A stretch of 64,000 nucleotides of DNA from contig NZ_MAOC01000004.1 of NCBI RefSeq assembly GCF_001884135.1, positions 84,013 to 148,012 of the forward strand, in the 5' to 3' direction. This DNA comes from Bacillus nitratireducens (lineage in GTDB: Bacteria > Bacillota > Bacilli > Bacillales > Bacillaceae_G). Position numbers and translations under genes: made by a program. Within the stretch, counting starts at the first letter, position 1, and each line of letters begins with the position of its first letter. Positions 3,429-34,976 of the stretch are shown here, piece by piece. The notes beneath the pieces are model-generated. The model saw only the letters and a program-made list of their open reading frames with translations, searched no databases and was not told the origin of the DNA.

Positions 3429-3450
3429 TATGTTCTCTTTCGCCTTTTTT
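3401..3450 (-). terminator. Terminator of the first FtsX-type ABC operon
   Basis: GCGAAAGAGAACAT at 3406-3419 pairs with ATGTTCTCTTTCGC at 3430-3443, a perfect 14-bp stem flanked by A and T runs. It lies just after the permease stop codon and overlaps the 5' end of the next ORF. Confidence 0.88.
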
Positions 3451-5371
3451 ATTTACTCACAATCCGAAAATAAGAACGAACCGTTAAGAAATAATATCCA
3501 ATATAAATAACACTATACACACCAATACTTATTAATAATGGCACTGCGATTTCATACGGAATTACTGTCGATAAACCTTTTATCGCAAATAAACTGTGTG
3601 AAATTCCAACTACTAACGGAATGAAGAAGATAAATCTCATTTGTTTTGCGATTGCTTTTTTCATTTCCTTTTTCGTTACCCCAAGCTTTCGAAGAACGAT
3701 GTAACGTTCACGATCTGCATGTGCTTCTGTTAATTGTTTGAAGTAAATGATAGAACCCGTTGCAAGTAAAAATACAAGTCCTAAGAACATACCACTAAAC
3801 ATAATTAATCCTGACATTTCAATACCATCTCGGAAAATAGTGTAAAAATCGCTAAATTGATTATTTCCTTCTGCATCTTCTTCTGGAATTACTTGTTTTA
3901 ATTTCTCTGTTAGCACTTTACTATTTCTTTCATCTTTTACATCAATGTTTTGTACAGTGTGAGAACCGAATGTCTTCTTCGCCTGCTCGTACACTTCATC
4001 TGGAACGACAACTACAAGTTCATATAAGTTTGTAATGTTTCGTGCTTTTACTTCTTTCACTTGTACCGGTGCTACTTCTCCAATTTGGAATATAGCCTTT
4101 CTATTTTTATAAACGCCACTATCCCTATTTCCTTCACTATACATACCATCAAACGCGTATGCTTCTGTTTTCTTCAAATCCACTATTTCTTCATTTAAAT
4201 ATTTCGCAATTTTATTAAATGATGATTGCGCCATAAGATTAGTCGTTCTTGATTTTAAGGCATCTTTATTTGAAACATCGTCACCAAATTCACCGACTAC
4301 TTTTACTGTTTCTAACTCATATTGATGAATAACTTCATTCTTTTCTATTTCCTCTTTTAAAATCTCCTTCACTTTACGATCTACATGATCATCTTTCTTT
4401 TCATATGAATAACTAACTGGCTTATATTTTTTCGCCTGCATATATGCGTTGTAGTACATTGTTACAGAAGTTCCAACTGCTGTTAATGTTACTGCGCTTA
4501 ATACTGCAATTGTTGCTAACGATTTTGCATTTCCTTTAATGCGGTATAGTAATTGAGATGTTGTAACAATTTGCATTCCGTTATAAAATGAAGATTTTTT
4601 GTTTCGCACTCTTTTTAATGCAAAAATAGTAAAGAACATAAATAATAAATACGTTCCAAGTACTGTTGCTAATAAAATGTAAAGAGCAAGTGGCATAAAG
4701 TTATCATCGTTAGCATTTTTAATAGCTGTTACTGATAAGAAATACCCTGAACCAATTAATAATACAGAAACGATAGCCATAATTTTAGAACCCTTTGGCA
4801 TTCCTTCGCCTTCATTATCTGCACGGAATAACTCGATTAACTTAAATTGATAAATAACACGATATCCTTTAAAAGATGTGTATAAAATAATAAAACAAAA
4901 AATAACTGCTGTATCTATAACCGCCCCAATTGGTACTTCAAAATGAACATTTACGCCCAATTCCATCATACTTACTAGTAACTGAAGGAACGATTTTGAA
5001 AGTAAACTACCAATTACAATTCCAATTACTAATGACAGGAAGCCCATCAACATATTTTCATAAAATAGCATTTTACCAATTTCTTTTTTTCTAATACCTA
5101 GTAAAGAATACAGACCTATTTCTTTCTTACGCTTCCGTGTGAAAAATCCATTTGAATATATAATAAATATCGCGACAAAAATAATAAGCATGACACTCGC
5201 AAGTTGAAACCCATTGTTCACTCGCTCTCCAGCTTCTCCTACTTGTGAATTGTACTGCAATGATTTAAATGTAAAATAAATGACGATACTAAAAATCATT
5301 GAAGCAAAGTAAATAAAATAATCTTTAAAATTTCGTTTTATATTACGAAGTGCAATGCTATACAAGCTCAC
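3449..5371 (-). CDS. FtsX-type (BceB-like) ABC transporter permease, module 1
   Basis: 640 residues. The arrangement is that of BceB/YxdM/VraG permeases: one N-terminal helix (residues about 18-37), FtsX-type helix groups near 55-75, 105-130, 150-180, 195-215 and 225-250, one near 285-305, then an extracellular domain of roughly 200 residues (about 310-520) and three C-terminal helices. The motif SNGFFTRKRKKEIGLYSLLGIRKKEIGKMLFYENM is typical of this family. Such permeases sense and give resistance to peptide antibiotics acting on lipid II-cycle intermediates, usually with a paired sensor kinase. It overlaps its ATPase gene by 14 bases. No kinase or response regulator is adjacent. It is a close paralogue of the permease at 9410-11359. 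Confidence 0.88.
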   Translation of the reverse strand: MSLYSIALRNIKRNFKDYFIYFASMIFSIVIYFTFKSLQYNSQVGEAGERVNNGFQLASVMLIIFVAIFIIYSNGFFTRKRKKEIGLYSLLGIRKKEIGKMLFYENMLMGFLSLVIGIVIGSLLSKSFLQLLVSMMELGVNVHFEVPIGAVIDTAVIFCFIILYTSFKGYRVIYQFKLIELFRADNEGEGMPKGSKIMAIVSVLLIGSGYFLSVTAIKNANDDNFMPLALYILLATVLGTYLLFMFFTIFALKRVRNKKSSFYNGMQIVTTSQLLYRIKGNAKSLATIAVLSAVTLTAVGTSVTMYYNAYMQAKKYKPVSYSYEKKDDHVDRKVKEILKEEIEKNEVIHQYELETVKVVGEFGDDVSNKDALKSRTTNLMAQSSFNKIAKYLNEEIVDLKKTEAYAFDGMYSEGNRDSGVYKNRKAIFQIGEVAPVQVKEVKARNITNLYELVVVVPDEVYEQAKKTFGSHTVQNIDVKDERNSKVLTEKLKQVIPEEDAEGNNQFSDFYTIFRDGIEMSGLIMFSGMFLGLVFLLATGSIIYFKQLTEAHADRERYIVLRKLGVTKKEMKKAIAKQMRFIFFIPLVVGISHSLFAIKGLSTVIPYEIAVPLLISIGVYSVIYIGYYFLTVRSYFRIVSK

Positions 5372-6128
5372 TTATAGCACCTCCAGAAATAGAAGACATA
5401 ACATCTACAATTTTTTGGAAGAACTGTTTACGTGTAAGCTCCCCGCGATATAACTCTTTATATAATTCTCCATCTTTAATGAATACAACTCGCTTGCAAT
5501 AACTCGCAGCGAATGCATCGTGCGTTACCATTAAAATTGTTGCACGATCTTTTTCATTTAATGATTTCATACTTTCTAATAAATCTGTCGCTGACTTAGA
5601 ATCAAGCGCACCAGTTGGCTCATCCCCAAAAATCATACTTGGATTTGTTACAATCGCTCTTGACGCTGCGCAGCGCTGCTTTTGTCCCCCTGATATTTCG
5701 TATGGATATTGATTTAAAATATGATCTATTCCAAATTTCTTTGCAATCATCTCAACGCGAGATTCTACCTCTTTCGCCTTCACTTTTGATAAAGCTAGGG
5801 GCAATGCAATATTTTCTCGTACTGTTAACGTATCTAATAAGTTATAATCTTGAAAAATGAATCCTAAATGATTACGGCGGAATAACGCCAATTCATCATC
5901 ATTCATCTTCACAATATCTTTTCCATCAATTAAAATCTCGCCTTTTGATGTTATATCAATAGTAGAAAGAACATTTAAAAGCGTCGTTTTCCCAGAACCA
6001 GATGGCCCCATAATACCGACAAATTCTCCTTCTTTCACCTGTAAATGAATATCTTTCAGCGCTTCAAATGTATTAATACCTGTATTATATATTTTCGAAA
6101 TCCCTTTCGCTTCTAGCATTGTTTTCAT
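5358..6128 (-). CDS. BceA-like ABC transporter ATPase, module 1
   Basis: 256 residues, the usual size for MacB/LolD-type ATPases. It has Walker A GPSGSGKTTLL (about 42-52), the signature SGGQKQR (about 147-153) and Walker B MIFGDEPTGALDSKSA (about 165-180), followed by the H-loop MVTHD. After this comes the extra C-terminal segment found in BceA-type proteins (ELYKELYRGELTRKQFFQKIVDVMSSISGG). It would energise the permease encoded by the overlapping downstream gene. The start ATG at 6128 follows AGGAGG. The promoter at 6182-6236 carries three TTAAGAAA boxes, also present upstream of yxeA and the methyltransferase gene. It is nearly the same length as, and very similar to, the ATPase at 11346-12116. 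Confidence 0.92.
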   Translation of the reverse strand: MKTMLEAKGISKIYNTGINTFEALKDIHLQVKEGEFVGIMGPSGSGKTTLLNVLSTIDITSKGEILIDGKDIVKMNDDELALFRRNHLGFIFQDYNLLDTLTVRENIALPLALSKVKAKEVESRVEMIAKKFGIDHILNQYPYEISGGQKQRCAASRAIVTNPSMIFGDEPTGALDSKSATDLLESMKSLNEKDRATILMVTHDAFAASYCKRVVFIKDGELYKELYRGELTRKQFFQKIVDVMSSISGGAISELV

Positions 6129-6181: not shown

Positions 6182-6236
6182 AGTATAAATAGATTTTCTT
6201 AACAAATAGTCACGGGGTTTCTTAATATTTTCTTAA
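6182..6236 (-). promoter_or_regulatory. TTAAGAAA-box promoter P1, upstream of ABC module 1
   Basis: Read on the minus strand: TTAAGAAA (6236-6229), 3 bases, TTAAGAAA (6225-6218), 15 bases, TTAAGAAA (6202-6195), 7 bases, TATACT (6187-6182). There is no good -35 hexamer; the last box occupies that region, as expected for activation by an OmpR-type regulator. The ATPase start codon lies about 53 bases downstream of the -10. Box spacing and -10 distance are identical to P2 at 6928-6982. Confidence 0.75.
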
Positions 6237-6282
6237 AAAGAAAAATCCAAAACCATACAAGATGATTACGGATTTCCTATAG

Positions 6283-6462
6283 TTAAAATATTAAATTACA
6301 TTTCGAGCAAAAAGGAGCAGAATTTCCTCTTCTAATTTTCGCATTACATTTTGGACAATATACATATCTCTCTTCTATCTTTTCTCGTTCTATCATTTGT
6401 AAGGATACTATTCTCATACTACACATAAATCCAATTAAAATAAGACTAACAATGAGTAGCAC
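6283..6462 (-). CDS. Small zinc-ribbon membrane protein (59 aa)
   Basis: A GTG at 6462, preceded by AGGGGG eight bases away, opens 59 codons ending in TAA at 6283. The product has one N-terminal hydrophobic helix (LLIVSLILIGFMCSM) followed by a charged linker and a C-terminal pair of CxxC knuckles (YCPKCNAKIRRGNSAPFCSKCNLIF), the layout of a zinc ribbon of the zinc_ribbon_2 kind. It probably sits in the membrane with the ribbon in the cytoplasm. The gene lies between yxeA and the ABC transporter on the same strand, in a position where it could be read from the yxeA promoter if the terminator at 6503-6533 is leaky. Function unknown. Confidence 0.65.
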   Translation of the reverse strand: MLLIVSLILIGFMCSMRIVSLQMIEREKIEERYVYCPKCNAKIRRGNSAPFCSKCNLIF

Positions 6463-6502
6463 AACTCTCGCCCCCTCTCACTACACTTTACCATAAAATA
6501 AC

Positions 6503-6533
6503 AAAACCGATTCCCACATTGAGAATCGGTTTT
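6503..6533 (-). terminator. Terminator after yxeA
   Basis: AAAACCGATTC pairs with GAATCGGTTTT around a 9-base loop, 5 bases beyond the yxeA stop codon. The T run works on the minus strand. Confidence 0.85.
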
Positions 6534-6537
6534 ATAC

Positions 6538-6885
6538 TTACAATCCTAATTTCGCCTTCGCTCCATCAGGAATTTTATCTGTTGTTACTTGCACTTTATC
6601 ATGTAAGAACTTACCTCTCGTAAGCACATGCCAGTATGAGCCTTTTGGTAATTCATCTACTTCATCAATTGTAACTTCTTTTTCCTTACCATTTTCATCA
6701 TAAGCTTTCACCTTATATTCACGACCTTTATTTCCACCTAACTCTTTACCAGCGTTATCAATTATTGCATAATGGTGCTCTATATCAAGGAAGGGATTCA
6801 TTTGATCTAACTTAGCGCTCCCATTTAATAAATATACCGCTCCTGCTATGATGACAAGTAATGATGCAAGGATAAATCTTTTCAT
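6538..6885 (-). CDS. yxeA: YxeA-family (DUF1093) exported protein
   Basis: 115 residues with an N-terminal hydrophobic segment (FILASLLVIIAGAVYLL) that serves as a signal peptide or membrane anchor. A small beta-rich domain follows, with the family features NPF near residue 30, a Y-x-V-KAYDENGKEKEVTIDE segment and KGSYWHV. In B. subtilis yxeA lies beside the yxdLM ABC transporter under YxdJK control, and here it is likewise beside a BceAB-like transporter, which supports the call and suggests a role in the peptide-antibiotic response. It has its own promoter (6928-6982) with the same TTAAGAAA box set as the transporter, and its own terminator. The molecular function of the family is not established. 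Confidence 0.82.
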   Translation of the reverse strand: MKRFILASLLVIIAGAVYLLNGSAKLDQMNPFLDIEHHYAIIDNAGKELGGNKGREYKVKAYDENGKEKEVTIDEVDELPKGSYWHVLTRGKFLHDKVQVTTDKIPDGAKAKLGL

Positions 6886-6927
6886 CTATATTCCGCCTTT
6901 CATTATGTTTTCTTTAAGATGTTTCTA

Positions 6928-6982
6928 AGTATAGAGCGTATTTCTTAATAAAAACTCGTACGGTTTCTTAACATTTTCTTAA
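6928..6982 (-). promoter_or_regulatory. TTAAGAAA-box promoter P2, upstream of yxeA
   Basis: On the minus strand: TTAAGAAA (6982-6975), 3 bases, TTAAGAAA (6971-6964), 15 bases, TTAAGAAA (6948-6941), 7 bases, TATACT (6933-6928). The yxeA ATG lies about 42 bases downstream of the -10. The layout is the same as P1. Confidence 0.75.
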
Positions 6983-7044
6983 ACTAAAAGTGAAATATTA
7001 ATTAGCGATACCAAAATAAACAAAAGTAACCCTTTACACTACCA

Positions 7045-7082
7045 TTGACAAAATTACACCTTTAGTGTAATTTTACACTAAA
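7045..7082 (+). promoter_or_regulatory. Promoter and palindromic operator of the XRE regulator gene
   Basis: TTGACA at 7045-7050, 17 bases, then TAATTT at 7068-7073. A perfect inverted repeat, TTTAGTGTAA-TT-TTACACTAAA, spans 7061-7082 over the -10. Further TTACAC half-sites occur at 7034-7039 and 7054-7059. The layout fits autorepression by the HTH protein encoded 20 bases downstream. Confidence 0.75.
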
Positions 7083-7101
7083 ACGAAAAAGGAGCCGTAT
7101 T

Positions 7102-7560
7102 ATGGATAAACAAGAATTTATTGAACTCGTTAATTCAAAATTAAAACTCATCCGTGTTGAAAATGATTTATCACAAGATAAAATGTCAGAAATTATTGGT
7201 TTATCGAAGAAAACATTAGTGGAAATTGAAAAAGGAAGACGTACGCTAACATGGTCAGGTGCAGTTTGTGTCGTAACACTCTTCGAACAGAGCGATACAG
7301 TCCAAATGACATTTGGGGATGATGTGAATGAAATTATAAAAACAATCGCTTTCACACATTACAATACGAAATTCCCGAAGACGTTAGGAGGAAAATTGTG
7401 GTGGCGACGAATAAAAGAATTAAACGGTTATCAAATACAACAAAACATTTTATCTCAACATTATAGAATTTTAGATACAGAAGACCGCAGAATATGCCAC
7501 TCATTCGAATTGGATGAAATTGAAAAGCGCTTTATGGAAATGGCAAAAGCATCTCAATAA
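7102..7560 (+). CDS. XRE-family helix-turn-helix transcriptional regulator
   Basis: 152 residues. The N-terminal 55-60 residues form a Cro/CI-type HTH (KLKLIRVENDLSQDKMSEIIGLSKKTLVEIEKGRR), with the usual LSQDKMSEIIG turn. The remaining 90 residues are a mixed-charge domain I do not recognise (contains KTLGGKLWWRRIKELNGYQIQQNILSQHYRIL). ATG at 7102 follows AAGGAGCC. The palindrome at 7061-7082 over its own -10 predicts autoregulation. The next gene, a small membrane protein, is 74 bases downstream on the same strand and is probably co-transcribed. The stop codon TAA is formed by the first bases of a shortened copy of the structured intergenic repeat. Confidence 0.85.
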   Translation: MDKQEFIELVNSKLKLIRVENDLSQDKMSEIIGLSKKTLVEIEKGRRTLTWSGAVCVVTLFEQSDTVQMTFGDDVNEIIKTIAFTHYNTKFPKTLGGKLWWRRIKELNGYQIQQNILSQHYRILDTEDRRICHSFELDEIEKRFMEMAKASQ

Positions 7561-7613
7561 AGTAAACCTTTAATCAGTTGGGGCTTTACTGCCCTTTAAT
7601 ACGAGATAAAATA
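7557..7613 (+). repeat. Shortened, diverged copy of the structured intergenic repeat
   Basis: The sequence begins ATAAAGT, continues CTTTAATCAGTTGGGGCTTT and ends TACTGCCC...GATAA. These match the two ends of the 159-bp element at 43691-43849 and 62177-62335 with the middle deleted. The ATAAAG start supplies the TAA stop of the XRE gene. Confidence 0.6.
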
Positions 7614-7633
7614 AATTCCGGAGTATAATTCAA

Positions 7634-8017
7634 ATGAAAAAACAGACAAGTATCACGATTTTAAATACGCTAATCATTAGCACCTTAGTATTCAATTTGT
7701 TTATTTTCACATCGAGAATGAGCTTTTTACCTTGGTATATTGAAGATGGATGGGAATATTTAGGATTATTATTTACATCCTTTATTTTCTTACTTTGCTT
7801 CTTTCAATCTTCGAAGCTTCATAAAGATGGAAAGTTAACTGCGCTACAAAAGTTCATTCCACTTGCTTCTGCCGCACTTTCAATCTTTGTTCTTATCACT
7901 CCATCAAGTGATTTTATGACTATATTAGCCAATCTGATCAATACAATCATATTAACAATTTATATAATTGTATTTCAGACAATGCCTAATGTAAGTAATA
8001 AGGAGTTATTACATTAA
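7634..8017 (+). CDS. Small four-helix membrane protein
   Basis: 127 residues with four predicted transmembrane segments (about residues 8-28, 42-60, 75-92 and 95-117), a short cytoplasmic loop (SSKLHKDGKLTALQK) and few charged residues. I do not recognise the family. ATG at 7634 follows CGGAG at ten bases. It lies behind the XRE regulator gene, separated by a shortened repeat element, and ends in a strong terminator, so the two likely form an operon in which the regulator controls the membrane protein. Such HTH/membrane pairs are sometimes immunity or stress modules; that is only an inference. Confidence 0.6.
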   Translation: MKKQTSITILNTLIISTLVFNLFIFTSRMSFLPWYIEDGWEYLGLLFTSFIFLLCFFQSSKLHKDGKLTALQKFIPLASAALSIFVLITPSSDFMTILANLINTIILTIYIIVFQTMPNVSNKELLH

Positions 8018-8053
8018 AAGGGAGAGTTATTTTACAAAATAACTCTCCCTTTT
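8016..8053. terminator. Bidirectional terminator
   Basis: An 18-bp perfect stem (AAAAGGGAGAGTTATTTT with its complement) and a two-base spacer between convergent genes. It overlaps the stop codon of the upstream gene. Confidence 0.92.
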
Positions 8054-8088
8054 ATACTACTCTCAATAACCATAAACCTTTATTCTAT

Positions 8089-8688
8089 TTACTTACTCAT
8101 CACTGTACTTCTTCTTTGCTTATACAAGTAAGCACCACTCGCAACAACAAAAACAAGCCCGCAAAAATACACGCCATACTCTATCGCAATCGCTACAATC
8201 TTGTTAATGTGTTGTCCAAATAATGAACCGAGTACAAAGTAAACGAGTGTCCAAACAAACCCTGTTGTATAGGAATACAAGGCATACATCTTAAATGACA
8301 TGTTATTCATTCCAACTAAATACGGTACAATATGTCTTACAACTGGTATGAAGTAACTTGTGACTAACGCATAATGGCCATACTTCTCTACCATTTGTTG
8401 AGATTTCAAAAGATATTTCGCTTTTTTCTTTTTCATTAGCTTATCAAGTACTTTTGTACCAAATATTTTCCCTAATATATAACCTAATGATAGCCCAGAT
8501 ACGACACCTAAATATGTTAATAAAAACGCTGGAATGACACTTAATATCCCTAGTGAAGATACAAAACCACCACTCATTACAATCATTTCATCTGGAATTG
8601 GCATACCGATAATACCTAACCATAAGCAGAAAAATAATGCCCCATAACCGTACTGCTCAATATAAGATAATAATTCGTGCAATTCCAT
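8089..8688 (-). CDS. DedA-family membrane protein
   Basis: 199 residues with four to five membrane segments and the DedA/VTT signatures: FLCLWLGIIGMPIPDEMIVMSGG near residues 19-42 (the E/D-containing re-entrant loop) and GHYALVTSYFIPVVRHIVPYLVGMNNMSFKMYALYSYTTG (F-x-P-x-x-R and G-x-N-x-M). DedA proteins are membrane transporters, several of which recycle undecaprenyl phosphate or flip phospholipids such as phosphatidylethanolamine. The start ATG overlaps the stop of the upstream methyltransferase gene by one base (TAATG), so the two are translationally coupled and read from the TTAAGAAA-box promoter P3. The context suggests a lipid-based response to membrane stress. Confidence 0.9.
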   Translation of the reverse strand: MELHELLSYIEQYGYGALFFCLWLGIIGMPIPDEMIVMSGGFVSSLGILSVIPAFLLTYLGVVSGLSLGYILGKIFGTKVLDKLMKKKKAKYLLKSQQMVEKYGHYALVTSYFIPVVRHIVPYLVGMNNMSFKMYALYSYTTGFVWTLVYFVLGSLFGQHINKIVAIAIEYGVYFCGLVFVVASGAYLYKQRRSTVMSK

Positions 8689-9266
8689 TATGCATACGCT
8701 CTCCTTAGCCCTTTTTTACAGCTAAAGACGTAAGCTGGCGGGAAATTGAGCCACACTTTTTCGAGTGTAATTTCAGGAAAGAAATGCTGTATAAATCCTT
8801 TTTTCACAAGTGAATATTGAAATGTAATAAATTCACCGTTCTCATGTATCGCCTCCATTACATTGTTTAAAATGCGCTTTGAAACTTCTTCTGGTAAAGA
8901 AGTAAAAGGCAATCCTGATAAGACATAATCGATGTAGTCTATATTTAACTCTTTCATATACTTCTTTATATTTTCCGCTGAACCGTGTATAACAATGACG
9001 TTCTGCTCATTTTTAAACTTTCTCGTTAACTCTTTGCAAAACACTTCATTAATTTCAATAAGAAGAAATATTGTCTCCTTCTTCTTTCTCTTCATAATTT
9101 CTTTCGTAAAAACACCTGTACCAGGCCCTAACTCTACGATACATTTCGCTCTATTAAAATCAATAATATTTACCATTTTCTTTGCTAATATTTTTGAACT
9201 TGGCGCAACTGCACCAGTATGTTTCGGATGTTTAATAAATTCATGTAAGAATGTTATGAGCTGCAC
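8688..9266 (-). CDS. Phospholipid N-methyltransferase-like class I SAM methyltransferase
   Basis: About 192 residues. SAM motif I is visible (CIVELGPGTGVFTKEI), followed by an acidic motif II (FLLIEIN), motif III (VIVIHGSAENIKKYM) and a motif IV LSGLPFTSLP. This PFTSLP variant and the N-terminal HPKHTGAVAPSSKILAKKM are shared with PmtA-type phospholipid N-methyltransferases and rRNA-dimethylase-like relatives. The likely role is membrane-lipid head-group methylation, though a different small substrate is possible. I place the start at the GTG at 9266 because GGGGAGAGG lies five bases upstream; the frame is open to a TTG at 9290 without a ribosome binding site. It is coupled to dedA and preceded by promoter P3. 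Confidence 0.75.
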   Translation of the reverse strand: MQLITFLHEFIKHPKHTGAVAPSSKILAKKMVNIIDFNRAKCIVELGPGTGVFTKEIMKRKKKETIFLLIEINEVFCKELTRKFKNEQNVIVIHGSAENIKKYMKELNIDYIDYVLSGLPFTSLPEEVSKRILNNVMEAIHENGEFITFQYSLVKKGFIQHFFPEITLEKVWLNFPPAYVFSCKKGLRRAYA

Positions 9267-9310
9267 ATAAACCTCTCCCCATTCGTTCAATAGTTTTTAA
9301 CTTGTTTCTA

Positions 9311-9365
9311 AGTATAACTATCGTTTCTTAATAAAAATTGAGGAGATTTCTTAAGATTTTATGAA
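9311..9365 (-). promoter_or_regulatory. TTAAGAAA-box promoter P3, upstream of methyltransferase-dedA
   Basis: On the minus strand: a degenerate box TCATAAAA (9365-9358), 3 bases, TTAAGAAA (9354-9347), 15 bases, TTAAGAAA (9331-9324), 7 bases, TATACT (9316-9311). Spacing is the same as P1 and P2. The methyltransferase start is about 44 bases downstream of the -10. Confidence 0.72.
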
Positions 9366-9409: not shown

Positions 9410-11359
9410 TTACTTCGCGCTCACAATCTTATAATAAGAGCGAACTGTTAAGAAGTAATATCCAATATAAATGACGCCATATACTCCGATACTAATTAGA
9501 AGCGGAATCATAATTTCAAATGGTAATAAATTTGCTAAGCCTTTTAGTGCAAATAAGCTATGCAGAATTCCGATTACTAACGGAATCGCAAAGATAAAGC
9601 TTACTTGTTTTGCAATAGCTTTTTTCATTTCTTGTTTCGTTACACCAACTTTACGAAGTACAACGTAACGCTCACGATCTGCATTTGCTTCAGTTAATTG
9701 CTTAAAGTAAATAATAGAGCCTGTTGCCAGTAAGAATACAAGTCCTAAGAACATTCCGATGAACATCATAAGTCCCGTTCCTTCAAGCCCCATTTGGAAA
9801 CCAGTATAGAAATCTCTAAATGATGGTACCATTTCTGATTCACCAACTGGCATCACTTTTGCTAACTTTTCTGTTACTACTTTACTGTTTCTTTCATCTT
9901 TTACATCAATATTTTTTACAGTACGTGTTCCAAATGCTTGCTTCGCCTGTTCATACATTTCATCTGAAACGACAATCACTAATTCACCTAAGTTCGTAAT
10001 TGCTGTATTATTTGCACCTTGAATCGTTAATGTCTTCGTTTCATTGCCAATTTGGAATACTGCTTTACTTCCTTTATATTGAGGACTAAACTCATACCCT
10101 TCAATATAAGAACTGTCATATATAAATGCTTCACCAGTAGCTACATTCACTGTTTCTGCATCGATTTTTTTAGCAAGTTTATTAAATTCGGACTGAGACA
10201 TAAACTGATATTTCTCTGAAATCGTGTAGTTTAGATTGAGAATGAAGTCCACTTTATCCCCTTCAAACTTCCCTTTTACAGGAACCGTCTCAATTTCAAA
10301 TTGATCTTTGACAGGGTGATTCGCCTTCTCTTCAGCAAGGATCGCATTTACTTTCTTATCTAGCTCTTCATCTTTTTTCTCATAAGAATAACTGTACGGC
10401 GCAGCTACTTTTGATTGTGTAAATGTATTGTAATACATCGTAACTGACGTACCAACCGCTGTTAATGTTACTGCACTTAAAATAGAAATTGTCGCCAGTG
10501 ACTTTGCATTTCCTTTAATACGATATAGTAACTGTGACGTCGTTACCATATTCATACCGTTATAAAACGATGATTTATTATTTTTTGCACGTTTTAATAC
10601 GAATACTGTAAAGAACATAAATAGTAAGTACGTACCTAATACTGTCGCCAGTAAAATGTAAAGTGCGACTACCATAAAGTCGGCATACTTAAGTGCTTTC
10701 ATATACATTAATGCTAAGAAATAACCTGAACCGATTAAGAAAACTGAAATTAATGCCATAATTACTGACCCTTTTGGCATTGCTTCTCCTTCACGTTCAG
10801 CGCGGAAAAGTTCAATTAGCTTGAATCGATAAATTAAACGATATCCTTGAAGTGATGTATACAATATAATCACAAAGAAAATAATTGCTGTATCAACAAT
10901 TGCAGCCATCGGTACTTCAAAATGTACATTTAAGTTTAATCCCATCATGCTTACTAATAATTCAAGGAATAGTTTCGAAAGGACGCTACCAATCGCAATC
11001 CCTATAATTAAAGACATTAATCCCATTAACATGTTTTCATAAAAGAGCATTTTACCGATCTGTCTTTTACGAATACCAAGTAACGAATATAGTCCAACTT
11101 CTTTTTTACGCTTTCGTGTAAAGAAGCCGTTCGAATATATAATGAACACCGCTACGAATATAATTAGCATGACACTTGAAACTTGAAACGCACCGCTAAT
11201 TTTTTTAGAACCTTCCGCAGCTTTTTCCATTTGTGAATTGTACTGCAACGCCTTAAATGTAAAATAAATGACGATGCTAAATATCATAGATGCAAAATAT
11301 ACAAAGTAGTCTTTAAAGTTCCGCTGTATGTTGCGGAGGGCAATGCTAGATAAGGTCAT
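9410..11359 (-). CDS. FtsX-type (BceB-like) ABC transporter permease, module 2
   Basis: 649 residues and closely similar over its length to the permease at 3449-5371: the same opening (SIALRNIQRNFKDYFVYFASMIFSIVIYFTF), the FFTRKRKKEVGLYSLLGIRKRQIGKMLFYENM motif, a divergent extracellular domain at about residues 315-530, and a conserved C-terminal helix block ending in VRSYYKIVSAK. The membrane parts are much better conserved than the extracellular domain, which suggests that the two modules recognise different peptides. It overlaps its ATPase gene by 14 bases. Unlike module 1, its promoter region lacks the TTAAGAAA boxes and faces a divergent AraC-type regulator. Confidence 0.88.
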   Translation of the reverse strand: MTLSSIALRNIQRNFKDYFVYFASMIFSIVIYFTFKALQYNSQMEKAAEGSKKISGAFQVSSVMLIIFVAVFIIYSNGFFTRKRKKEVGLYSLLGIRKRQIGKMLFYENMLMGLMSLIIGIAIGSVLSKLFLELLVSMMGLNLNVHFEVPMAAIVDTAIIFFVIILYTSLQGYRLIYRFKLIELFRAEREGEAMPKGSVIMALISVFLIGSGYFLALMYMKALKYADFMVVALYILLATVLGTYLLFMFFTVFVLKRAKNNKSSFYNGMNMVTTSQLLYRIKGNAKSLATISILSAVTLTAVGTSVTMYYNTFTQSKVAAPYSYSYEKKDEELDKKVNAILAEEKANHPVKDQFEIETVPVKGKFEGDKVDFILNLNYTISEKYQFMSQSEFNKLAKKIDAETVNVATGEAFIYDSSYIEGYEFSPQYKGSKAVFQIGNETKTLTIQGANNTAITNLGELVIVVSDEMYEQAKQAFGTRTVKNIDVKDERNSKVVTEKLAKVMPVGESEMVPSFRDFYTGFQMGLEGTGLMMFIGMFLGLVFLLATGSIIYFKQLTEANADRERYVVLRKVGVTKQEMKKAIAKQVSFIFAIPLVIGILHSLFALKGLANLLPFEIMIPLLISIGVYGVIYIGYYFLTVRSYYKIVSAK

Positions 11360-12116
11360 CAGCCATACCTCCAGAAATAGAAGACATTACGTCAACGACT
11401 TTTTGGAAGAATTGTTTACGCGTTAATTCACCGCGGTGTAATTCTTTATATAACTCACCATCTTTAATGAAAATAACTCGTTTACAATAACTCGCCGCAA
11501 ATGCATCGTGTGTTACCATTAAAATTGTAGAGTTATCATATTCATTTAACGACTTCATACTTTCTAATAAATCTGTCGCTGATTTAGAATCAAGTGCTCC
11601 AGTCGGCTCGTCCCCAAATATCATACTAGGACTTGTAACGATCGCGCGCGATGCTGCGCAGCGCTGCTTCTGTCCACCAGATACTTGATATGGGAACTGA
11701 CTTAAAATATGATCAATACCGAATTTCTTTGAGATTTCAAGAACGCGGCGATCAATCTCACTCGCTTTCACCTTTGATAACGCAAGAGGTAACGCAATAT
11801 TCTCTTTCACCGTTAACGTATCTAATAAGTTATAATCTTGGAAAATGAAACCTAAATGATCACGGCGGAATAACGCCAGCTTATCATCGTTCATCTTCAC
11901 GATATCTTTTCCATCAATTAAAATTTCACCGTTCGTCGCATTATCAATTGTAGAAAGAACATTTAAAAGAGTCGTCTTACCCGAACCAGAAGGTCCCATA
12001 ATTCCAACGAACTCCCCTTCTTTTACTTGTAAGTTAATACCTTTTAAAGCTGCAAATTTATTCCCACCTGTGTCATATACTTTTTCAATATTTTTTGCTT
12101 CTAACACTGTTTTCAT
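11346..12116 (-). CDS. BceA-like ABC transporter ATPase, module 2
   Basis: 256 residues from the ATG at 12116, matching the length and N-terminus (MKTVLEAK) of the module 1 ATPase (MKTMLEAK). GAGGG lies eight bases upstream of this ATG; the frame extends five codons further to 12131 without a better site. It has Walker A GPSGSGKTTLL, signature SGGQKQR, Walker B MIFGDEPTGALDSKSA and the same C-terminal RGELTRKQFFQKVVDVMSSISGG tail. It probably powers the overlapping permease in antimicrobial-peptide sensing or removal. The upstream region holds one of two 28-bp dyads shared with the divergent AraC-type gene. Confidence 0.92.
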   Translation of the reverse strand: MKTVLEAKNIEKVYDTGGNKFAALKGINLQVKEGEFVGIMGPSGSGKTTLLNVLSTIDNATNGEILIDGKDIVKMNDDKLALFRRDHLGFIFQDYNLLDTLTVKENIALPLALSKVKASEIDRRVLEISKKFGIDHILSQFPYQVSGGQKQRCAASRAIVTSPSMIFGDEPTGALDSKSATDLLESMKSLNEYDNSTILMVTHDAFAASYCKRVIFIKDGELYKELHRGELTRKQFFQKVVDVMSSISGGMADDLI

Positions 12117-12190
12117 CTCGACATCCCTCATTTCTTCTATTCTCTATTTTCAACTATATACACTCTCTACTCTTGCCACTATCGATGTTT

Positions 12191-16860: not shown

Positions 16861-16890
16861 TTGAAACACATGATACACTATAGCTACAAT
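16861..16890 (+). promoter_or_regulatory. SigA-type promoter of the BceRS-like operon
   Basis: TTGAAA at 16861-16866, 18 bases, TACAAT at 16885-16890, about 25 bases before the ATG at 16915. Confidence 0.5.
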
Positions 16891-16914
16891 TGTTTTTTTA
16901 GGAGGAATATACAT

Positions 16915-17610
16915 ATGTATAAAATTTTAATCGTTGAAGACGATCCAAATATTTCATCATTACTACAATCTCACATTCAAAAATATGGCTATGAAGCTGT
17001 TGTTGCAGAGAACTTCGATGATATTATGGAATCGTTTAACGCTGTGAAACCACATCTTGTTTTACTTGATGTAAACTTACCGAAATTCGATGGTTTCTAC
17101 TGGTGCCGTCAAATTCGCCATGAATCTACTTGCCCAATTATTTTCATTTCAGCGCGTGCTGGTGAGATGGAACAAATTATGGCGATTGAAAGCGGTGCGG
17201 ATGATTATATTACAAAACCGTTCCACTATGACGTTGTAATGGCGAAAATTAAAGGTCAATTACGTCGTATTTACGGTGATTATGCACCAAATATTTCTGA
17301 ACGTATCGTTGAAGTAGAAGGTTTAAAACTATTCCCAGAACGCCCAGAAATTCATTTCGGCGCTGAGCAAGTTCTTTTAACAAAGAAAGAGGCGATTTTA
17401 GCAGAAATGTTATTATCTAAATTCCCTCGTACAGCGAGCCGTGAAGATTTATTAGCTGCTTTATGGGATGATGAGAGCTTCGTTGAAGAAAATACATTAA
17501 ACGTAAACATTACGCGTCTTCGTAAAAAGTTCAATGAGCTTGGTATTGAAAATGCTATTGAAACAGTACGTGGACTTGGGTATCGTTTTAACGCAACTTG
17601 GAGTGAATAA
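16915..17610 (+). CDS. BceR/GraR-like OmpR-family response regulator
   Basis: 231 residues. The receiver domain has the acidic pair E8-D9-D10 (VEDDPN), phospho-acceptor Asp52 (LLDVNLPKFDG), Thr/Ser near 80 (FISARAG) and Lys near 102 (YITKPF). The C-terminal winged helix ends in NVNITRLRKKFNELGIENAIETVRGLGYRF, which matches the BceR/GraR/YxdJ group. ATG at 16915 follows GGAGG; the longer frame back to 16861 contains the promoter and is rejected. The gene is three bases ahead of the kinase gene. It probably activates the downstream permease/ATPase genes; whether it binds the TTAAGAAA boxes at 6-9 kb cannot be told from sequence. Confidence 0.9.
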   Translation: MYKILIVEDDPNISSLLQSHIQKYGYEAVVAENFDDIMESFNAVKPHLVLLDVNLPKFDGFYWCRQIRHESTCPIIFISARAGEMEQIMAIESGADDYITKPFHYDVVMAKIKGQLRRIYGDYAPNISERIVEVEGLKLFPERPEIHFGAEQVLLTKKEAILAEMLLSKFPRTASREDLLAALWDDESFVEENTLNVNITRLRKKFNELGIENAIETVRGLGYRFNATWSE

Positions 17611-20700: not shown

Positions 20701-20720
20701 ATAAGAAAAAGGTGAGCTTT

Positions 20721-20792
20721 ATGAAAAGAGTATGCGGAAAAATCCCCCATACTCCTTTCACATTAACTCTATTAGGAGGTCTAGGCGCATGA
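20721..20792 (+). CDS. Possible 23-codon leader ORF before permease B
   Basis: ATG at 20721, preceded by AAAGGTGAG, opens 23 codons (MKRVCGKIPHTPF...GGLGA) and ends in a TGA that overlaps the permease ATG (ATGA). The 5' part contains a hairpin, GAGTATG (20728-20734) with CATACTC (20748-20754). The layout could couple or attenuate translation of permease B. The encoded peptide itself has no recognisable feature, so the ORF may be fortuitous. Confidence 0.35.
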   Translation: MKRVCGKIPHTPFTLTLLGGLGA

Positions 20793-22747: not shown

Positions 22748-22766
22748 AAATAGAAAGGTGATTACT

Positions 22767-23519
22767 ATGGAAGAAGTTTTACACATAAAAAACGTCTCAA
22801 AAGTATATGAAGGAAAAGTCCCTCATACCGCTTTAAAAAATATAAATTTACATGTAGATAAAGGCGAATTCGTTGCGATTATGGGGCCGTCTGGGAGCGG
22901 TAAATCTACATTTTTAAACGTTATCTCTACAATTGATTCCCCTACTTCTGGTGATGTCGTTATTAACGGAAAAAAACCGCACACATTTCGTAGAGAGAAG
23001 TTAGCTATTTTCCGCCGCCAAGAGTTAGGGTTTGTTTTCCAAAACTTTAACCTACTGGATACACTGACAATCGGTGAAAATATCGTACTACCTTTAACTT
23101 TAGATAATGTTCCATTAAAAGAAATGGACGAAAAACTTGAGAACATTTCAAAAAAGCTTGGAATTGATCATATTTTGGACAAACGTATTTTTGAAGTTTC
23201 TGGAGGACAAGCACAGCGTACTGCAGTAGCGCGTGCTGTTATTCATCATCCATCACTTCTACTTGCCGATGAACCGACAGGAAACTTAGATTCGAAAGCA
23301 GCAATTGATGTAATGGAATTATTTACGAAATTAAATAAAGAAGAGGATGCCACAATTTTAATGGTTACTCACGATCCGTTTGCAGCAAGTTATTGTAACC
23401 GCGTTATTTTCATTAAAGATGGTGGGCTTTACAATGAATTACACCGCGGACTATATCGCGAGAAATTTTATCAAGAAATTTTAGATGTTTTAGCATTATT
23501 AGGAGGAAGACGTGGATGA
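22767..23519 (+). CDS. BceA-like ATPase shared by the three-permease cluster
   Basis: 250 residues from the ATG at 22767, six bases after AAAGGTG. Walker A GPSGSGKSTFL (about 41-51), signature SGGQAQR, Walker B LLLADEPTGNLDSKAA, H-loop MVTHD and the BceA-type tail (GGLYNELHRGLYREKFYQEILDVLALLGG). Its signature and tail differ clearly from the two ATPases at 5-12 kb, in line with a separate subgroup. Its end overlaps permease C by four bases. As the only ATPase in a cluster with three permeases, it probably serves more than one of them. Confidence 0.92.
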   Translation: MEEVLHIKNVSKVYEGKVPHTALKNINLHVDKGEFVAIMGPSGSGKSTFLNVISTIDSPTSGDVVINGKKPHTFRREKLAIFRRQELGFVFQNFNLLDTLTIGENIVLPLTLDNVPLKEMDEKLENISKKLGIDHILDKRIFEVSGGQAQRTAVARAVIHHPSLLLADEPTGNLDSKAAIDVMELFTKLNKEEDATILMVTHDPFAASYCNRVIFIKDGGLYNELHRGLYREKFYQEILDVLALLGGRRG

Positions 23520-32235: not shown

Positions 32236-33096
32236 CTATTCCTGAACCGTCACAATAACCCCGTCCATATTATTCCCCGAAATTTCATACTGCTTATTCG
32301 CTGGAACATTCACGTTCATACGACCTGAAACTTTATAATAAGAAACCGTATATTTCTTACCTTCAACCTCAGTTGAAACTTCTTTTTCCTCTTTTAAGAA
32401 GTCCAAATATTCCTCTAACGTAATCTTCTTTTTTTGCATAATTGCGCTATGAGGTAGGCCGACATAACGTATGTGCCACGGCTCATATTGAATGCCCGTA
32501 ATATTACTTTTATTTTTCGGATAACGTAAAACAAACCCGTGCTTCCATACGTTCTCTTCAATCCATTTTCCTTCAGGAGCTTTCTCCATTTTCTTTTGAG
32601 TAGACCCAACGTCGAGTGATAACCCTAAATTATGTTCACTATATCCTGCTGGAAGTGCATAATCAGATCCCATTTCTTTATATAATTTACTTTGTTCTTG
32701 AAAATCTCGGTAACCGCTACTCATTAAGAAATGCTCTACTCCATCTTTCCCAGCTGCATCGACAACGTTCAAAAACTTTTTTACAACACCCTTTGATAAG
32801 CGAAGATTTCTATCAAATATTACATAGCCTCTTACTAATTCACTATTGTGATTTACATTTATAATATCGGACCTAACACTATCTTTTTTAACCGGATAAT
32901 CTTTATTAACTAATAATAGATCACCTTTATAAATTTCTTCTTTTGTCACTTCTACCTTTTCAGTATTCGCAGCTTTTACTTTATTATCTTTTTCTGCAAT
33001 TTTAACGTCGATCTCCTTTTGAAATAATGGTGATATATAAAAGCCTACACATGCTGTACATACTATAAATAGAGAAATAAATACCCACTTTTTCAT
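32236..33096 (-). CDS. VanY-family D-alanyl-D-alanine carboxypeptidase
   Basis: 286 residues with an N-terminal hydrophobic anchor (WVFISLFIVCTACVGFYI) and a peptidase M15B domain. Catalytic motifs: SSGYRDFQEQ (about 127-135), SEHNLGLSLDV with zinc ligands His155 and Asp162, and EPWHIRYVG with Glu205 and His208. The enzyme trims the terminal D-Ala from peptidoglycan pentapeptides on the outer face of the membrane. A C-terminal extension of about 70 residues follows (EEYLDFLKEEKEVSTEVEGKKYTVSYY...). AGGAGG precedes the ATG. It lies 82 bases behind the VanRS-like genes on the same strand, so it is probably their target. No vanH, ligase or vanX gene is present. Confidence 0.9.
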   Translation of the reverse strand: MKKWVFISLFIVCTACVGFYISPLFQKEIDVKIAEKDNKVKAANTEKVEVTKEEIYKGDLLLVNKDYPVKKDSVRSDIINVNHNSELVRGYVIFDRNLRLSKGVVKKFLNVVDAAGKDGVEHFLMSSGYRDFQEQSKLYKEMGSDYALPAGYSEHNLGLSLDVGSTQKKMEKAPEGKWIEENVWKHGFVLRYPKNKSNITGIQYEPWHIRYVGLPHSAIMQKKKITLEEYLDFLKEEKEVSTEVEGKKYTVSYYKVSGRMNVNVPANKQYEISGNNMDGVIVTVQE

Positions 33097-33178
33097 TTCT
33101 AGTTCCTCCTTAACTTAACTTACGTATAGAATAGAAAAAACTATTAAAATAAAAAGTGGGGTAAAGTTTAAATTTTTA

Positions 33179-34285
33179 TTAAATTGTTTCGCTTTCTTCT
33201 TTTGGCAATCTCACTTCAAATATCGTTCTAATAACATCGCTTTCAGCAGAAATCGTACCATCATGCTGCTCGATAATATTTTTTGCGATAAATAGTCCAA
33301 GGCCTGTTCCGCCACGGTCCTCTGTTCTCGATTTATCACCTGTATAAAACACATCAAAAAGATACGGTAAATCTTCTTCTGGAATGCTATCTCCGTAATT
33401 TATAATTTGTACAACAACTTCTTCATTATCGATATACCCATTCATATCAACAAATTGTCCATCGCATCCGTATCGAACGGCATTTGTTAACAAGTTTTCA
33501 AATACTCTAGCTAGCAATTTCCCATCACCATTAATTGGTAAATGAGGATCAACATTCAGCCTAGCTTCTAAATGATGTTTCTCTAATAGCGGATATAATT
33601 CCTCGTCTAACTGTATGAGTAATTCACTTATATCAATTTGCTTTTTATCTAGCTTTAGCATGCCATAATTCATACGTGTAATTTCAAATAGTTCATCAAT
33701 TAAACTTTCCAGTCTTTGCGATTTTGTATATGCAATCGTAGAAAAATGCTTAATTTGTTCCTTCGTTAAATTCTCATCTTTAAGAATTAAATCTAAATAT
33801 CCTAACACAGATGTTAGCGGCGTTCTTAAATCATGAGCTAAGTTAACAATTAACTGGTCTTTACTACTCTCTGCAAAGTCTCCTCGTTCCACTGCTTCTT
33901 TTAATTTTTCACTCGCTACATTAATTTCGCCGGCGATATATCCAAACTCATCATTTGATAAAACGCGAACTTGATTTGTAAAATCCCCATTCGCCAAATG
34001 ATGAATCCCGTCTGAAATTTCATCAAAATACTTTAAATATGGTCTAGTAAGGAAGAAAAAAAACATAATAGACAGAGGGATGAATATAAGTAAAAAGAAA
34101 GTAATATCCCCAATCCCTCTTATAACTGAACGAAATTGAGCTAAAGGATCCTCATAATGCACCGCTAATTTATAGTAAATCCGTAATCCTTCATAAATTA
34201 AATACGTTACACCAGCTGCTAATACCATACTTAACGCAAATAGCATAACCATCTTCGAGCGAAAGCTTCTCATCTTTTTAGCCAT
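33179..34285 (-). CDS. VanS-like sensor histidine kinase
   Basis: 368 residues. Two membrane segments (about 10-30 and 60-80) flank a short extracytoplasmic loop of about 30 residues, followed by a HAMP domain (82-135), the H-box LIVNLAHDLRTPLTSVLGYL with His151, N-box NLLTNAVRYG, and G-boxes GDSIPEEDLPYLFDVFYTGDKSR and GGTGLGLFIAK. The loop size and order resemble VanS of the VanB-unrelated groups and YcbM-type kinases. It overlaps the response regulator gene by eight bases. It likely responds to cell-wall stress and controls the VanY-like gene. Confidence 0.87.
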   Translation of the reverse strand: MAKKMRSFRSKMVMLFALSMVLAAGVTYLIYEGLRIYYKLAVHYEDPLAQFRSVIRGIGDITFFLLIFIPLSIMFFFFLTRPYLKYFDEISDGIHHLANGDFTNQVRVLSNDEFGYIAGEINVASEKLKEAVERGDFAESSKDQLIVNLAHDLRTPLTSVLGYLDLILKDENLTKEQIKHFSTIAYTKSQRLESLIDELFEITRMNYGMLKLDKKQIDISELLIQLDEELYPLLEKHHLEARLNVDPHLPINGDGKLLARVFENLLTNAVRYGCDGQFVDMNGYIDNEEVVVQIINYGDSIPEEDLPYLFDVFYTGDKSRTEDRGGTGLGLFIAKNIIEQHDGTISAESDVIRTIFEVRLPKEESETI

Positions 34286-34976
34286 TGAAAGTATACCCTA
34301 CTCCCCACACTGTTTTTATTAACTTATTCTTTCTTTTATCTTCTCCAAGTTTTTTCCGCAAAGTACGGATATGTACCATAACTGTATTTCCGCCTTCATA
34401 ATAATCATCTGCCCATACTTGCTGGAATATATTTTCCACACTGTACACTTTCTTCGGGTGACTTGCTAATACATATAAAATATCAAATTCTTTTGGTGTT
34501 AATTCAATTGGCTCTCCGTACACATTTACTGTTCGGCGCTCAGGATCAATAACAATTCCACCAATTTCCAAAGCAGATTTACTCTCTTCTATTTTCGGCT
34601 GATTTAACGTAAGAAATCGGCGTAGTTGTGCATTTACGCGGGCAACTAATTCAATCGGTGTAAAAGGCTTCGTCATATAATCATCTGCGCCTAATACAAG
34701 ACCTGTCACCTTATCAAAATCAGATGTTTTCGCACTTAAGAAAATGATTGGCATATGATGTTTTGCGCGAATTTGGCGCGTCACTTCATAACCATCCATT
34801 TTCGGCATCATAATATCTAAGACCACTAATTCGATTGGCTGCGTTTGAATAATATGCATGGCTTCTTCTCCATCAGCTGCTTTAACGACGTGGTACCCTT
34901 CTTTTTCTAAATGTATCTCTATTAAATCAGCAATTTCTGCCTCATCATCTGCTATTAAAATTGAAATGTTCTTCAT
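34278..34976 (-). CDS. VanR-like OmpR-family response regulator
   Basis: 232 residues. Receiver domain with D10-D11 (IADDEAE), phospho-acceptor Asp54 (VVLDIMMPKMDG), FLSAKTS and YMTKPF, then an OmpR-type winged helix (ELTPKEFDILYVLASHPKKVYSVENIFQQVWADDYYEGGNTVMVHIRTLRKKLGEDKRKNKLIKTVWGVGYTFNG). The domain order and the VWADDYYEGGNTVMVHIRTLRKKLGE stretch are VanR-like. GGGGGAG precedes the ATG. Its upstream region is only 54 bases and contains a short repeat element after menC, so the promoter is probably within or just beyond that element. Confidence 0.9.
   Translation of the reverse strand: MKNISILIADDEAEIADLIEIHLEKEGYHVVKAADGEEAMHIIQTQPIELVVLDIMMPKMDGYEVTRQIRAKHHMPIIFLSAKTSDFDKVTGLVLGADDYMTKPFTPIELVARVNAQLRRFLTLNQPKIEESKSALEIGGIVIDPERRTVNVYGEPIELTPKEFDILYVLASHPKKVYSVENIFQQVWADDYYEGGNTVMVHIRTLRKKLGEDKRKNKLIKTVWGVGYTFNG

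What the first reader, a model, noticed from the sequence alone, without database searches (positions are those of the whole stretch)
6182..9365. Three promoters with an identical TTAAGAAA box array: a candidate envelope-stress regulon
P1 (6182-6236, ABC module 1), P2 (6928-6982, yxeA) and P3 (9311-9365, phospholipid methyltransferase-dedA) all read, on the minus strand, TTAAGAAA-N3-TTAAGAAA-N15-TTAAGAAA-N7-TATACT; only the first box of P3 is degenerate. Box starts are 11 and 23 bases apart, about one and two helical turns, and the last box replaces the -35. This is what an OmpR-type activator would need. It ties a peptide-antibiotic transporter, YxeA, a lipid-modifying enzyme and DedA into one response. 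The two response regulators in the window do not carry the array before their own genes, so the regulator is unknown.
Basis: partly seen in the sequence, partly recalled or inferred. Interest (0 to 1): 0.85.

Follow-up and report, generated by a model that had tools for sequence, protein, structure and literature searches.

The report
Shared switch for cell-envelope defence genes
Three neighbouring Bacillus promoters carry the same three-part DNA switch, and the same switch in many other Bacillota sits before genes of VanR-type cell-wall sensors and their targets, which suggests that one such sensor turns on a peptide-antibiotic pump, YxeA, a lipid methyltransferase and a DedA protein together.

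Summary
P1 and P2 carry the exact array and P3 has one degenerate box; in 100 shuffles the exact array never occurs. One correction: box 3 lies at -27 to -20, between the -35 and -10 positions, so it does not replace the -35.

The same array occurs in 97 stretches of a genome collection, 96 of them Bacillota by title. A matrix built from those sites scores P1-P3 at 49.5, 48.5 and 44.3; the next window site scores -0.2. In 46 of 98 arrays a VanR-like regulator starts within 400 bases. The 40 complete ones tested form one clade with the window's VanR.

Relatives of the window's methyltransferase give the clearest link. Of 30 loci read (of 54 found), 26 have a VanR-type regulator next door and 25 of those have the array; 0 of the 4 others have it.

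So P1-P3 look like a VanR-clade envelope-stress regulon. By array flavour they fit another VanR subgroup than the window's own VanR, so the regulator probably lies elsewhere in the genome, which is not held. Binding and induction are untested.

The parts
6182..6236 (-). P1: three TTAAGAAA boxes (6229-6236, 6218-6225, 6195-6202) and -10 TATACT (6182-6187), before the ABC ATPase gene
   Evidence: exact match, 0 of 100 shuffles; foreign-trained matrix score 49.5
6928..6982 (-). P2: three TTAAGAAA boxes (6975-6982, 6964-6971, 6941-6948) and -10 TATACT (6928-6933), before yxeA
   Evidence: exact match; matrix score 48.5
9311..9365 (-). P3: boxes 9358-9365 (degenerate), 9347-9354, 9324-9331 and -10 TATACT (9311-9316), before the methyltransferase-dedA operon
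   Evidence: 2 mismatches of 21; matrix score 44.3
5358..6128 (-). ABC transporter ATPase, target of P1
   Evidence: ORF; generic ABC ATPase hits, no curated cut-off reached among the 25 shown
3449..5371 (-). FtsX-type ABC permease, BceB-like by architecture (label recalled), target of P1
   Evidence: ORF; Pfam FtsX 70 bits
6538..6885 (-). YxeA family protein (DUF1093), target of P2
   Evidence: TIGR01655 49.1 bits, cut-off 29.65; PF06486
8688..9290 (-). class I methyltransferase (PlMT), related to ornithine-lipid and phospholipid N-methyltransferases; target of P3
   Evidence: best NCBIfam OlsG 121.4 bits, cut-off 350 not met; relatives next to VanR-type regulators
8089..8688 (-). DedA/VTT family membrane protein, second gene of the P3 operon
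   Evidence: PF09335 94.9 bits; UptA model 65.5 bits, cut-off 250 not met
34278..34976 (-). VanR-clade response regulator, candidate (not the favoured one) for P1-P3; no array of its own
   Evidence: vanR_FM 447.9 bits, cut-off 460; in the VanR clade; leader read
33179..34285 (-). VanS-like histidine kinase
   Evidence: HK_VanS 379.8 bits, cut-off 400
32236..33096 (-). VanY-like D,D-carboxypeptidase
   Evidence: vanY_AFMPt 413.8 bits, cut-off 425; PF02557
33125..33183 (-). degenerate array before vanY, in register with vanY arrays of other genomes
   Evidence: matrix score -7.3, below the best simulated window; same register in a vanM plasmid, Niallia, Bacillus and Rossellomorea; group-1 flavour, log ratio -52.7
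16861..17610 (+). BceR-like response regulator (label by kinship to the transporter-linked kind), considered and rejected as regulator of P1-P3
   Evidence: outside the VanR clade; different recognition helix

Best explanation
P1-P3 are targets of a phosphorylated VanR-clade (OmpR-family) response regulator that answers cell-envelope stress. A dimer binds boxes 1 and 2 (about -61 to -43, 11 bases apart); a further molecule or dimer binds box 3 (-27 to -20) next to RNA polymerase and makes up for the missing -35. This switches on together an ABC transporter, YxeA, and a lipid methyltransferase with a DedA protein. The regulator is most likely of the subgroup that in other genomes lies in the same operon as the methyltransferase, or beside the YxeA-ABC genes, and here would act in trans from elsewhere in the chromosome. 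Shown: the array, its spacing, its place before the same genes and before VanR-clade regulators elsewhere. Inferred: binding, activation, the inducing signal and the location of the regulator. For the clade alone (any VanR-clade regulator) my confidence is about 0.84; the figure below is for the subgroup.
For: Array in 97 stretches of a genome collection; 75 of 98 arrays have their best -10-like hexamer at the same distance. A VanR-like regulator starts within 400 bases in 46 of 98 arrays, the methyltransferase in 10. 40 array-adjacent regulators and 9 lying up to 2.3 kb downstream join the window's VanR in one clade, without 17 other Rossellomorea OmpR-type regulators (SH-aLRT 93, two partial regulators left out); the wider clade has 100/97 support. 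In 397 genomes 118 sites match against 7 for the reversed pattern. Methyltransferase relatives: 25 of 26 with a neighbouring VanR-type regulator carry the array, 0 of 4 without one within about 1.5 kb; shuffled leaders 13 of 1200. G119 has array-RR-HK followed by array-YxeA-ABC; G001 has array-ABC with RR-HK about 2 kb behind. Flavour test: P1 +29.0, P2 +28.8, P3 +34.4 towards the second subgroup's arrays; leave-one-out right for 14 of 14 and 16 of 16. Of 20 further downstream proteins scanned, about half act on the envelope: VanZ, PAP2, PBP1-type, S11 carboxypeptidase, NlpC/P60, GT28 and others.
Against: No genome of the window's organism could be read and none of the 19 genomes was a close relative, so the proposed regulator was not seen. 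The flavour test may reflect shared ancestry of orthologous promoters rather than regulator specificity; its sets are small, chosen by me and hold near-copies (two of the 16 are identical). The methyltransferase relatives use 10/23 spacing, not the 11/23 of P1-P3 (Lysinibacillus does use 11/23). Several VanR-clade regulators have no array before them, e.g. G005:C23 and G119:C12 and CesR. A DNA relative of the transporter (81% identity) on a B. arachidis plasmid has no array, and the window's second, similar ABC module (9410-12131) has none. 33 of 98 arrays precede genes not matched to any of the 17 window proteins compared.
Confidence: 0.57

Rival explanations
1. The window's own VanR (34278-34976, VanR-F/M type), 25 kb away, regulates P1-P3 in trans. 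It lost its own array and adopted the promoters after the original regulator was lost from the P3 operon.
For: It is a VanR-clade member whose near relatives have strong arrays before their own genes (L034 52.1, L069 49.0, L086 48.6) and the same recognition helix, NTVMVHIRTLRKKL. It is the only VanR-clade regulator seen in the window (ORFs of at least 120 aa).
Against: The arrays linked to this subgroup (vanR and vanY promoters) have another flavour; P1-P3 score +28.8 to +34.4 away from it, while the window's vanY site scores -52.7 towards it. In G240 both subgroups coexist, and the methyltransferase-dedA operon carries its own regulator.
Confidence: 0.27
2. A CiaR-like regulator (BAS0540 type) binds the arrays, since CiaR also recognises TTAAG repeats 11 bases apart.
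For: CiaR consensus NTTAAG-N5-TTTAAG with 10 bases to the -10 (passages of PMC3091779); BAS0540 bound such sites in gel shifts (passages of PMC4938410). Boxes 1-2 of P1 and P2 match with one mismatch (read by eye).
Against: CiaR sites have two repeats, not three at 11/23, and a different recognition helix, VVEVYVSKVRKKL, against NTVMVHIRTLRKKL in the window VanR. No CiaR sequence could be put into the trees, so its kinship to the array-linked regulators was not tested.
Confidence: 0.07
3. The BceR-like regulator in the window (16861-17610) controls P1-P3, as in classical bacitracin modules.
For: P1 drives a BceAB-like transporter.
Against: None of the 42 regulators of at least 180 aa within 400 bases downstream of an array scores better to the window's BceR-like protein than to its VanR; in G119 and G001 the transporter lies near a VanR-type regulator; the recognition helix differs.
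Confidence: 0.03
4. The arrays are chance or copies of one recently duplicated promoter.
For: The sequence is AT-rich, and the two-box part with mismatches is only weakly above chance.
Against: 0 of 100 shuffles for the three-box array; 118 against 7 in the reversed-pattern control; the spacers between boxes differ among P1, P2 and P3; found across Bacillota.
Confidence: 0.01

Closest known systems
VanR of glycopeptide-resistance clusters (VanR-A, -G, -M)
   Same: VanR-M is in the same clade. VanR-G has three direct-repeat sites, consensus (T/C)CGTANGAAA(T/A)T, whose TANGAAA core fits TTAAGAAA (passages of PMC4405338; the fit is my reading). The vanY-M leader carries the same array geometry.
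   Different: In vanG the sites lie upstream of the -35; here the last box lies at -27 to -20. Targets here are a transporter, YxeA and lipid-related genes, not vanHAX-type genes.
CroR (Enterococcus) and CesR (Listeria) cell-envelope stress regulators
   Same: A CroR-dependent motif TTTATTAA lies inside AAACTTTATTAAGAAA of the pbp4(5) promoter (passages of PMC9426447), and TTTATTAAGAAA occurs in P2 and P3. CesR falls in the VanR clade.
   Different: No three-box array at 11/23 is described in the passages seen; the 10.7-kb cesR region has no array. CroR itself was not placed in a tree.
CiaR of streptococci
   Same: TTAAG repeats 11 bases apart and the last repeat 10 bases before the -10.
   Different: Two boxes, other recognition helix, other targets.
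Clostridioides difficile RR_1586
   Same: OmpR-family; tandem DRTTAAGNWWW repeats, one listed site reads TCTTAAGAAATATTTAAGAATT (passages of PMC6222199).
   Different: Two-box model, sporulation-related regulator; its clade was not tested.
B. subtilis yxdJK-yxdLM-yxeA / BceRS-BceAB modules
   Same: Same transporter plus YxeA content (PMC3968067 passages).
   Different: Those are taken to be run by BceR-type regulators (recalled); here VanR-type.

Membership tests
VanR-clade (VanR/CesR-type) regulon | Array found next to VanR-clade regulator genes in other genomes | tested here: met
   46 of 98 arrays; 52 of 90 loci in a second set
VanR-clade (VanR/CesR-type) regulon | Array-linked regulators form one clade that excludes other OmpR-type regulators | tested here: met
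   SH-aLRT 93, just under the program's mark of 95; wider clade 100/97, which also holds members without an array
VanR-clade (VanR/CesR-type) regulon | Cognate regulator present in the same genome | tested here: inconclusive
   One VanR-clade member in the window, of another array flavour; whole genome not held
VanR-clade (VanR/CesR-type) regulon | Regulator binds the array and activates P1-P3 | not testable with these tools
   needs gel shift, footprint and reporter assays
VanR-clade (VanR/CesR-type) regulon | Induction by cell-wall antibiotics | not testable with these tools
   no expression data at hand
Glycopeptide-resistance VanR (VanR-F/M) proper | Window regulator passes the curated vanR_FM cut-off | tested here: not met
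   447.9 bits against 460
CiaR regulon | Two TTTAAG repeats with N5 between and N10 to the -10 | tested here: not met
   three boxes; the 11-base pair lies 23 bases further upstream (CiaR layout)
CiaR regulon | CiaR-type recognition helix in array-linked regulators | tested here: not met
   mostly (M/A/S)VHIR in the alignment against VVEVYVSKVRKKL
BceRS-BceAB module | BceR-type regulator beside the array or the transporter | tested here: not met
   0 of 42 adjacent regulators; VanR-type near the transporter in G119 and G001

The most novel reading that the evidence does not exclude
The three-box array (TTAAGAA, box starts 11 or 10 and then 23 apart, last box between the -35 and -10 positions) is the common output code of VanR-clade cell-wall sensors throughout Bacillota. 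In the window's lineage an undescribed VanR-type system, ancestrally in one operon with a lipid methyltransferase, has left its operon and now runs a scattered lipid-and-transport defence regulon in trans. Whole envelope-stress regulons could then be read from sequence alone.
Probability: 0.45. Interest if true: 0.72.

Novelty: new variant of a known kind. Interest (0 to 1): 0.58.

Why it matters
VanR-type systems are known mainly from vancomycin resistance and, in related form, from CroR and CesR. Here the same clade, with one rigid promoter grammar, is tied to transporters, YxeA (function unknown), a lipid methyltransferase and DedA, as well as to PBPs, carboxypeptidases and PAP2 phosphatases elsewhere. 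This gives a searchable signature for envelope-stress regulons, suggests a role for the methyltransferase-DedA pair and for YxeA, and shows that the same array geometry precedes vanY in the clinical vanM cluster.

Tried and rejected
Family of Priestia taiwanensis searched for the P1-P2 DNA: 19 genomes, only two short matches of 34 and 38 bases. Looking for other B. cereus-group copies in plasmid records: one B. arachidis plasmid with 81% identical transporter genes and no array, no YxeA match. Viral contigs: no relatives of the methyltransferase or YxeA confirmed. Listeria cesRK and a C. difficile VanR-like locus: no array within 10.7 kb each. A P. aryabhattai methyltransferase locus: no array. 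The loose pattern with free spacing is not enriched as a whole over its reversed control; control counts, swollen by simple repeats in some genomes, are of the same order (not summed). Only the 11/23 and 10/23 classes stand out. BceR, CiaR and chance are treated under the rivals.

Literature: ten searches listed no paper that I could recognise as describing this array before YxeA, the transporter or the methyltransferase. The library holds open-licence papers only; de Been et al. 2008, which predicted regulator sites in B. cereus, was seen only as a reference entry. PMC12724132 and PMC8541618 gave nothing on sites; PMC4132741 says that no LisR consensus was known. I saw only passages found by terms and one outline; I read no paper whole.
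Full report
WHAT IS THERE. P1 and P2 carry, on the minus strand, three exact TTAAGAAA boxes with starts 11 and 23 bases apart and TATACT seven bases after the last box; P3 has the same layout with a degenerate first box. The exact pattern occurs twice in the window and in none of 100 dinucleotide shuffles. The two-box part with mismatches is not far above chance, so the evidence rests on three boxes in fixed spacing. Taking the -10 as -12..-7, box 1 starts at about -61, box 2 at -50 and box 3 spans -27 to -20. The -35 slots (ACTATT, AGTTTT, AATTTT) show no -35 element.

IT IS NOT LOCAL. A scan of a collection with one genome for each of 84,980 species for TTAAGAA-N4-TTAAGAA-N16-TTAAGAA found 97 stretches (98 arrays). 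By title 96 are Bacillota and one is Flavobacterium (L064). My rough estimate of chance matches, from base composition and not from a call, was about one. In 75 of 98 the best -10-like hexamer sits at the same distance. No title names a B. cereus-group species, which suggests that this group is not held. A score matrix built from the 98 arrays ranks P1, P2 and P3 first in the window (49.5, 48.5, 44.3); the next site scores -0.2 and the best of 50 simulated windows 9.5. In 397 genomes of one order, the pattern with a -10 and up to 3 mismatches gave 118 matches in 94 genomes, against 7 for the reversed pattern (rows counted by eye). Many of the 118 are orthologous copies and not independent. With both gaps left free, the loose pattern as a whole is not enriched over its reversed control, but 25 of 124 distinct strings had spacing 11/23 and 7 had 10/23; the next commonest had 6 (the printed list was incomplete).

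WHICH REGULATOR FAMILY. I compared downstream genes with 17 window proteins. Within 400 bases downstream of the 98 arrays lie: a VanR-like response regulator in 46, the methyltransferase in 10, an ABC ATPase in 6, DedA, YxeA and VanY in 1 each, and none of these in 33. In 90 loci read from the order-wide set (of 118 sites; loci L205 and L206 resolve to one site) the counts are regulator 52, VanY 6, YxeA 3, ABC ATPase 3, DedA 2, other 24. Ten array-linked regulators tested all have a VanR model as best NCBIfam match, nine of the ten below the curated cut-offs. In a tree with the OmpR-type regulators of one Rossellomorea genome, 40 array-adjacent regulators and 9 lying up to 2.3 kb downstream form one clade with the window's VanR, apart from 17 other regulators of that genome (SH-aLRT 93; two partial regulators and one doubtful hit were left out). 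In a careful tree the wider VanR clade, with VanR-M, Listeria CesR and a C. difficile regulator, has 100/97 support; it also holds members without an array. The array-linked regulators mostly share an NTV(M/A/S)VHIR recognition helix with the window's VanR; the BceR-like regulator of the window does not. Pfam scans of 20 further downstream proteins, drawn mostly from the unmatched arrays (L033, L063 and L093 were already classed; some genes start 340 to 550 bases away), found VanZ, two PAP2 proteins, two PBP1-type proteins, an S11 carboxypeptidase, NlpC/P60, a phage-type lysozyme domain, a GH18, a GT28/MGDG-synthase-like protein and an ECF sigma factor; also two ABC ATPases, a methyltransferase, an amino-acid permease, a transposase-like nuclease, and four without a convincing family.

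THE SAME TARGETS ELSEWHERE. Lysinibacillus has array, methyltransferase, DedA, VanR-type regulator, kinase in a row (in some loci the stretch ends before the kinase or regulator). G119 has array-RR-HK followed by array-YxeA-ABC; G001 has array-ABC with RR-HK about 2 kb behind; G005 has array-YxeA-ABC; G240 and a Priestia megaterium plasmid have the methyltransferase with RR, HK and DedA. The clearest test: 52 of 397 genomes hold a relative of the window's methyltransferase at E up to 1e-30 (54 matches). I read the 30 loci that the tool supplied. 26 have a VanR-type regulator downstream, and 25 of these carry the array within 5 mismatches of 21 (spacing 10/23); none of the 4 without a regulator in the roughly 1.5 kb downstream does; shuffled leaders (simple base shuffles) reach this in 13 of 1200. 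So array and VanR-type regulator go together, and the window, with the array but no neighbouring regulator, is the exception that calls for a regulator in trans.

WHICH VANR. The clade has subgroups. The window's VanR (34278-34976) belongs to the VanR-F/M subgroup; the clinical VanR-M is 78.4% identical. In this subgroup arrays stand before vanR and, weaker, before vanY; in the window the vanR array is absent and the vanY one degenerate (score -7.3). I compared 14 arrays linked to this subgroup with 16 linked to the other one: 11 before the methyltransferase, 3 from G119 and G001, 2 before Paenibacillus regulators. Leave-one-out, 14 of 14 and 16 of 16 fall on the right side; P1, P2 and P3 score +29.0, +28.8 and +34.4 towards the second, the window's vanY site -52.7 towards the first. 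Caveats: I chose the sets, they contain near-copies, five of the 14 were assigned by a VanY neighbour alone, and orthologous promoters may resemble each other by descent. I therefore put about 0.57 on a VanR of the second subgroup elsewhere in the genome and 0.27 on the window's own VanR.

HOW IT LIKELY WORKS. By analogy with OmpR-family activators (established knowledge), a phosphorylated dimer would occupy boxes 1-2 and a further subunit pair box 3, touching RNA polymerase at a promoter without a -35. The output would be a transporter, YxeA, and a lipid methyltransferase with DedA. The inducing signal is inferred to be envelope stress from the company the array keeps. None of this has been shown experimentally.

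KNOWN RELATIVES. VanR-G binds three 12-bp direct repeats with consensus (T/C)CGTANGAAA(T/A)T upstream of the -35 (passages). CroR regulation of pbp4(5) needs a stretch that contains TTTATTAAGAAA (passages). CiaR uses two TTTAAG repeats and another recognition helix (passages). So the kind is known; the three-box grammar reaching to -20, its breadth, and its link to YxeA-ABC and methyltransferase-DedA genes are what I found no description of in ten searches of an open-licence library.

Noticed in passing
window 32236-34976: Chromosomal VanR-VanS-VanY cluster; its regulator groups with VanR-M of E. faecium vanM plasmids (96/88 support), which suggests a source lineage for that cluster's sensor genes.
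   Followed up: partly
L169:7819-7877: The vanY-M leader on an E. faecium vanM plasmid carries the same three-box geometry (score 6.6).
   Followed up: partly
L170 (NZ_CP100662.1): A record labelled Pseudomonas fluorescens plasmid pZL222 has the gene order of the window (glg, men, VanR-VanS-VanY) and a VanR 93 to 94% identical; it looks like B. cereus-group chromosomal DNA under the wrong name.
   Followed up: partly
L170:14746-15000: The gap between menC and the vanR gene is 255 bases here against 53 in the window, with several GATATAWTT-like repeats.
   Followed up: no
L265:4915-8288: A Hymenobacter (Bacteroidota) plasmid has the methyltransferase with a VanR-type system and at least two TTAAGA boxes before it: possible transfer between phyla.
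   Followed up: partly
L139-L233 (many): A large VanR subgroup with histidine kinases of about 700 aa carries the array before its own operon, often with TTAAGAT as third box; its function is unknown to me.
   Followed up: partly
window 9410-12131: A second ABC module similar to the P1 module has no array before it.
   Followed up: no
window 18730-25495: Three related FtsX-type permease genes (label by likeness to the P1 permease, not scanned), with one ATPase gene, lie behind the BceR-like two-component genes.
   Followed up: no
L078:141-614: An array stands before an ECF sigma factor gene, so the regulon may cascade.
   Followed up: no
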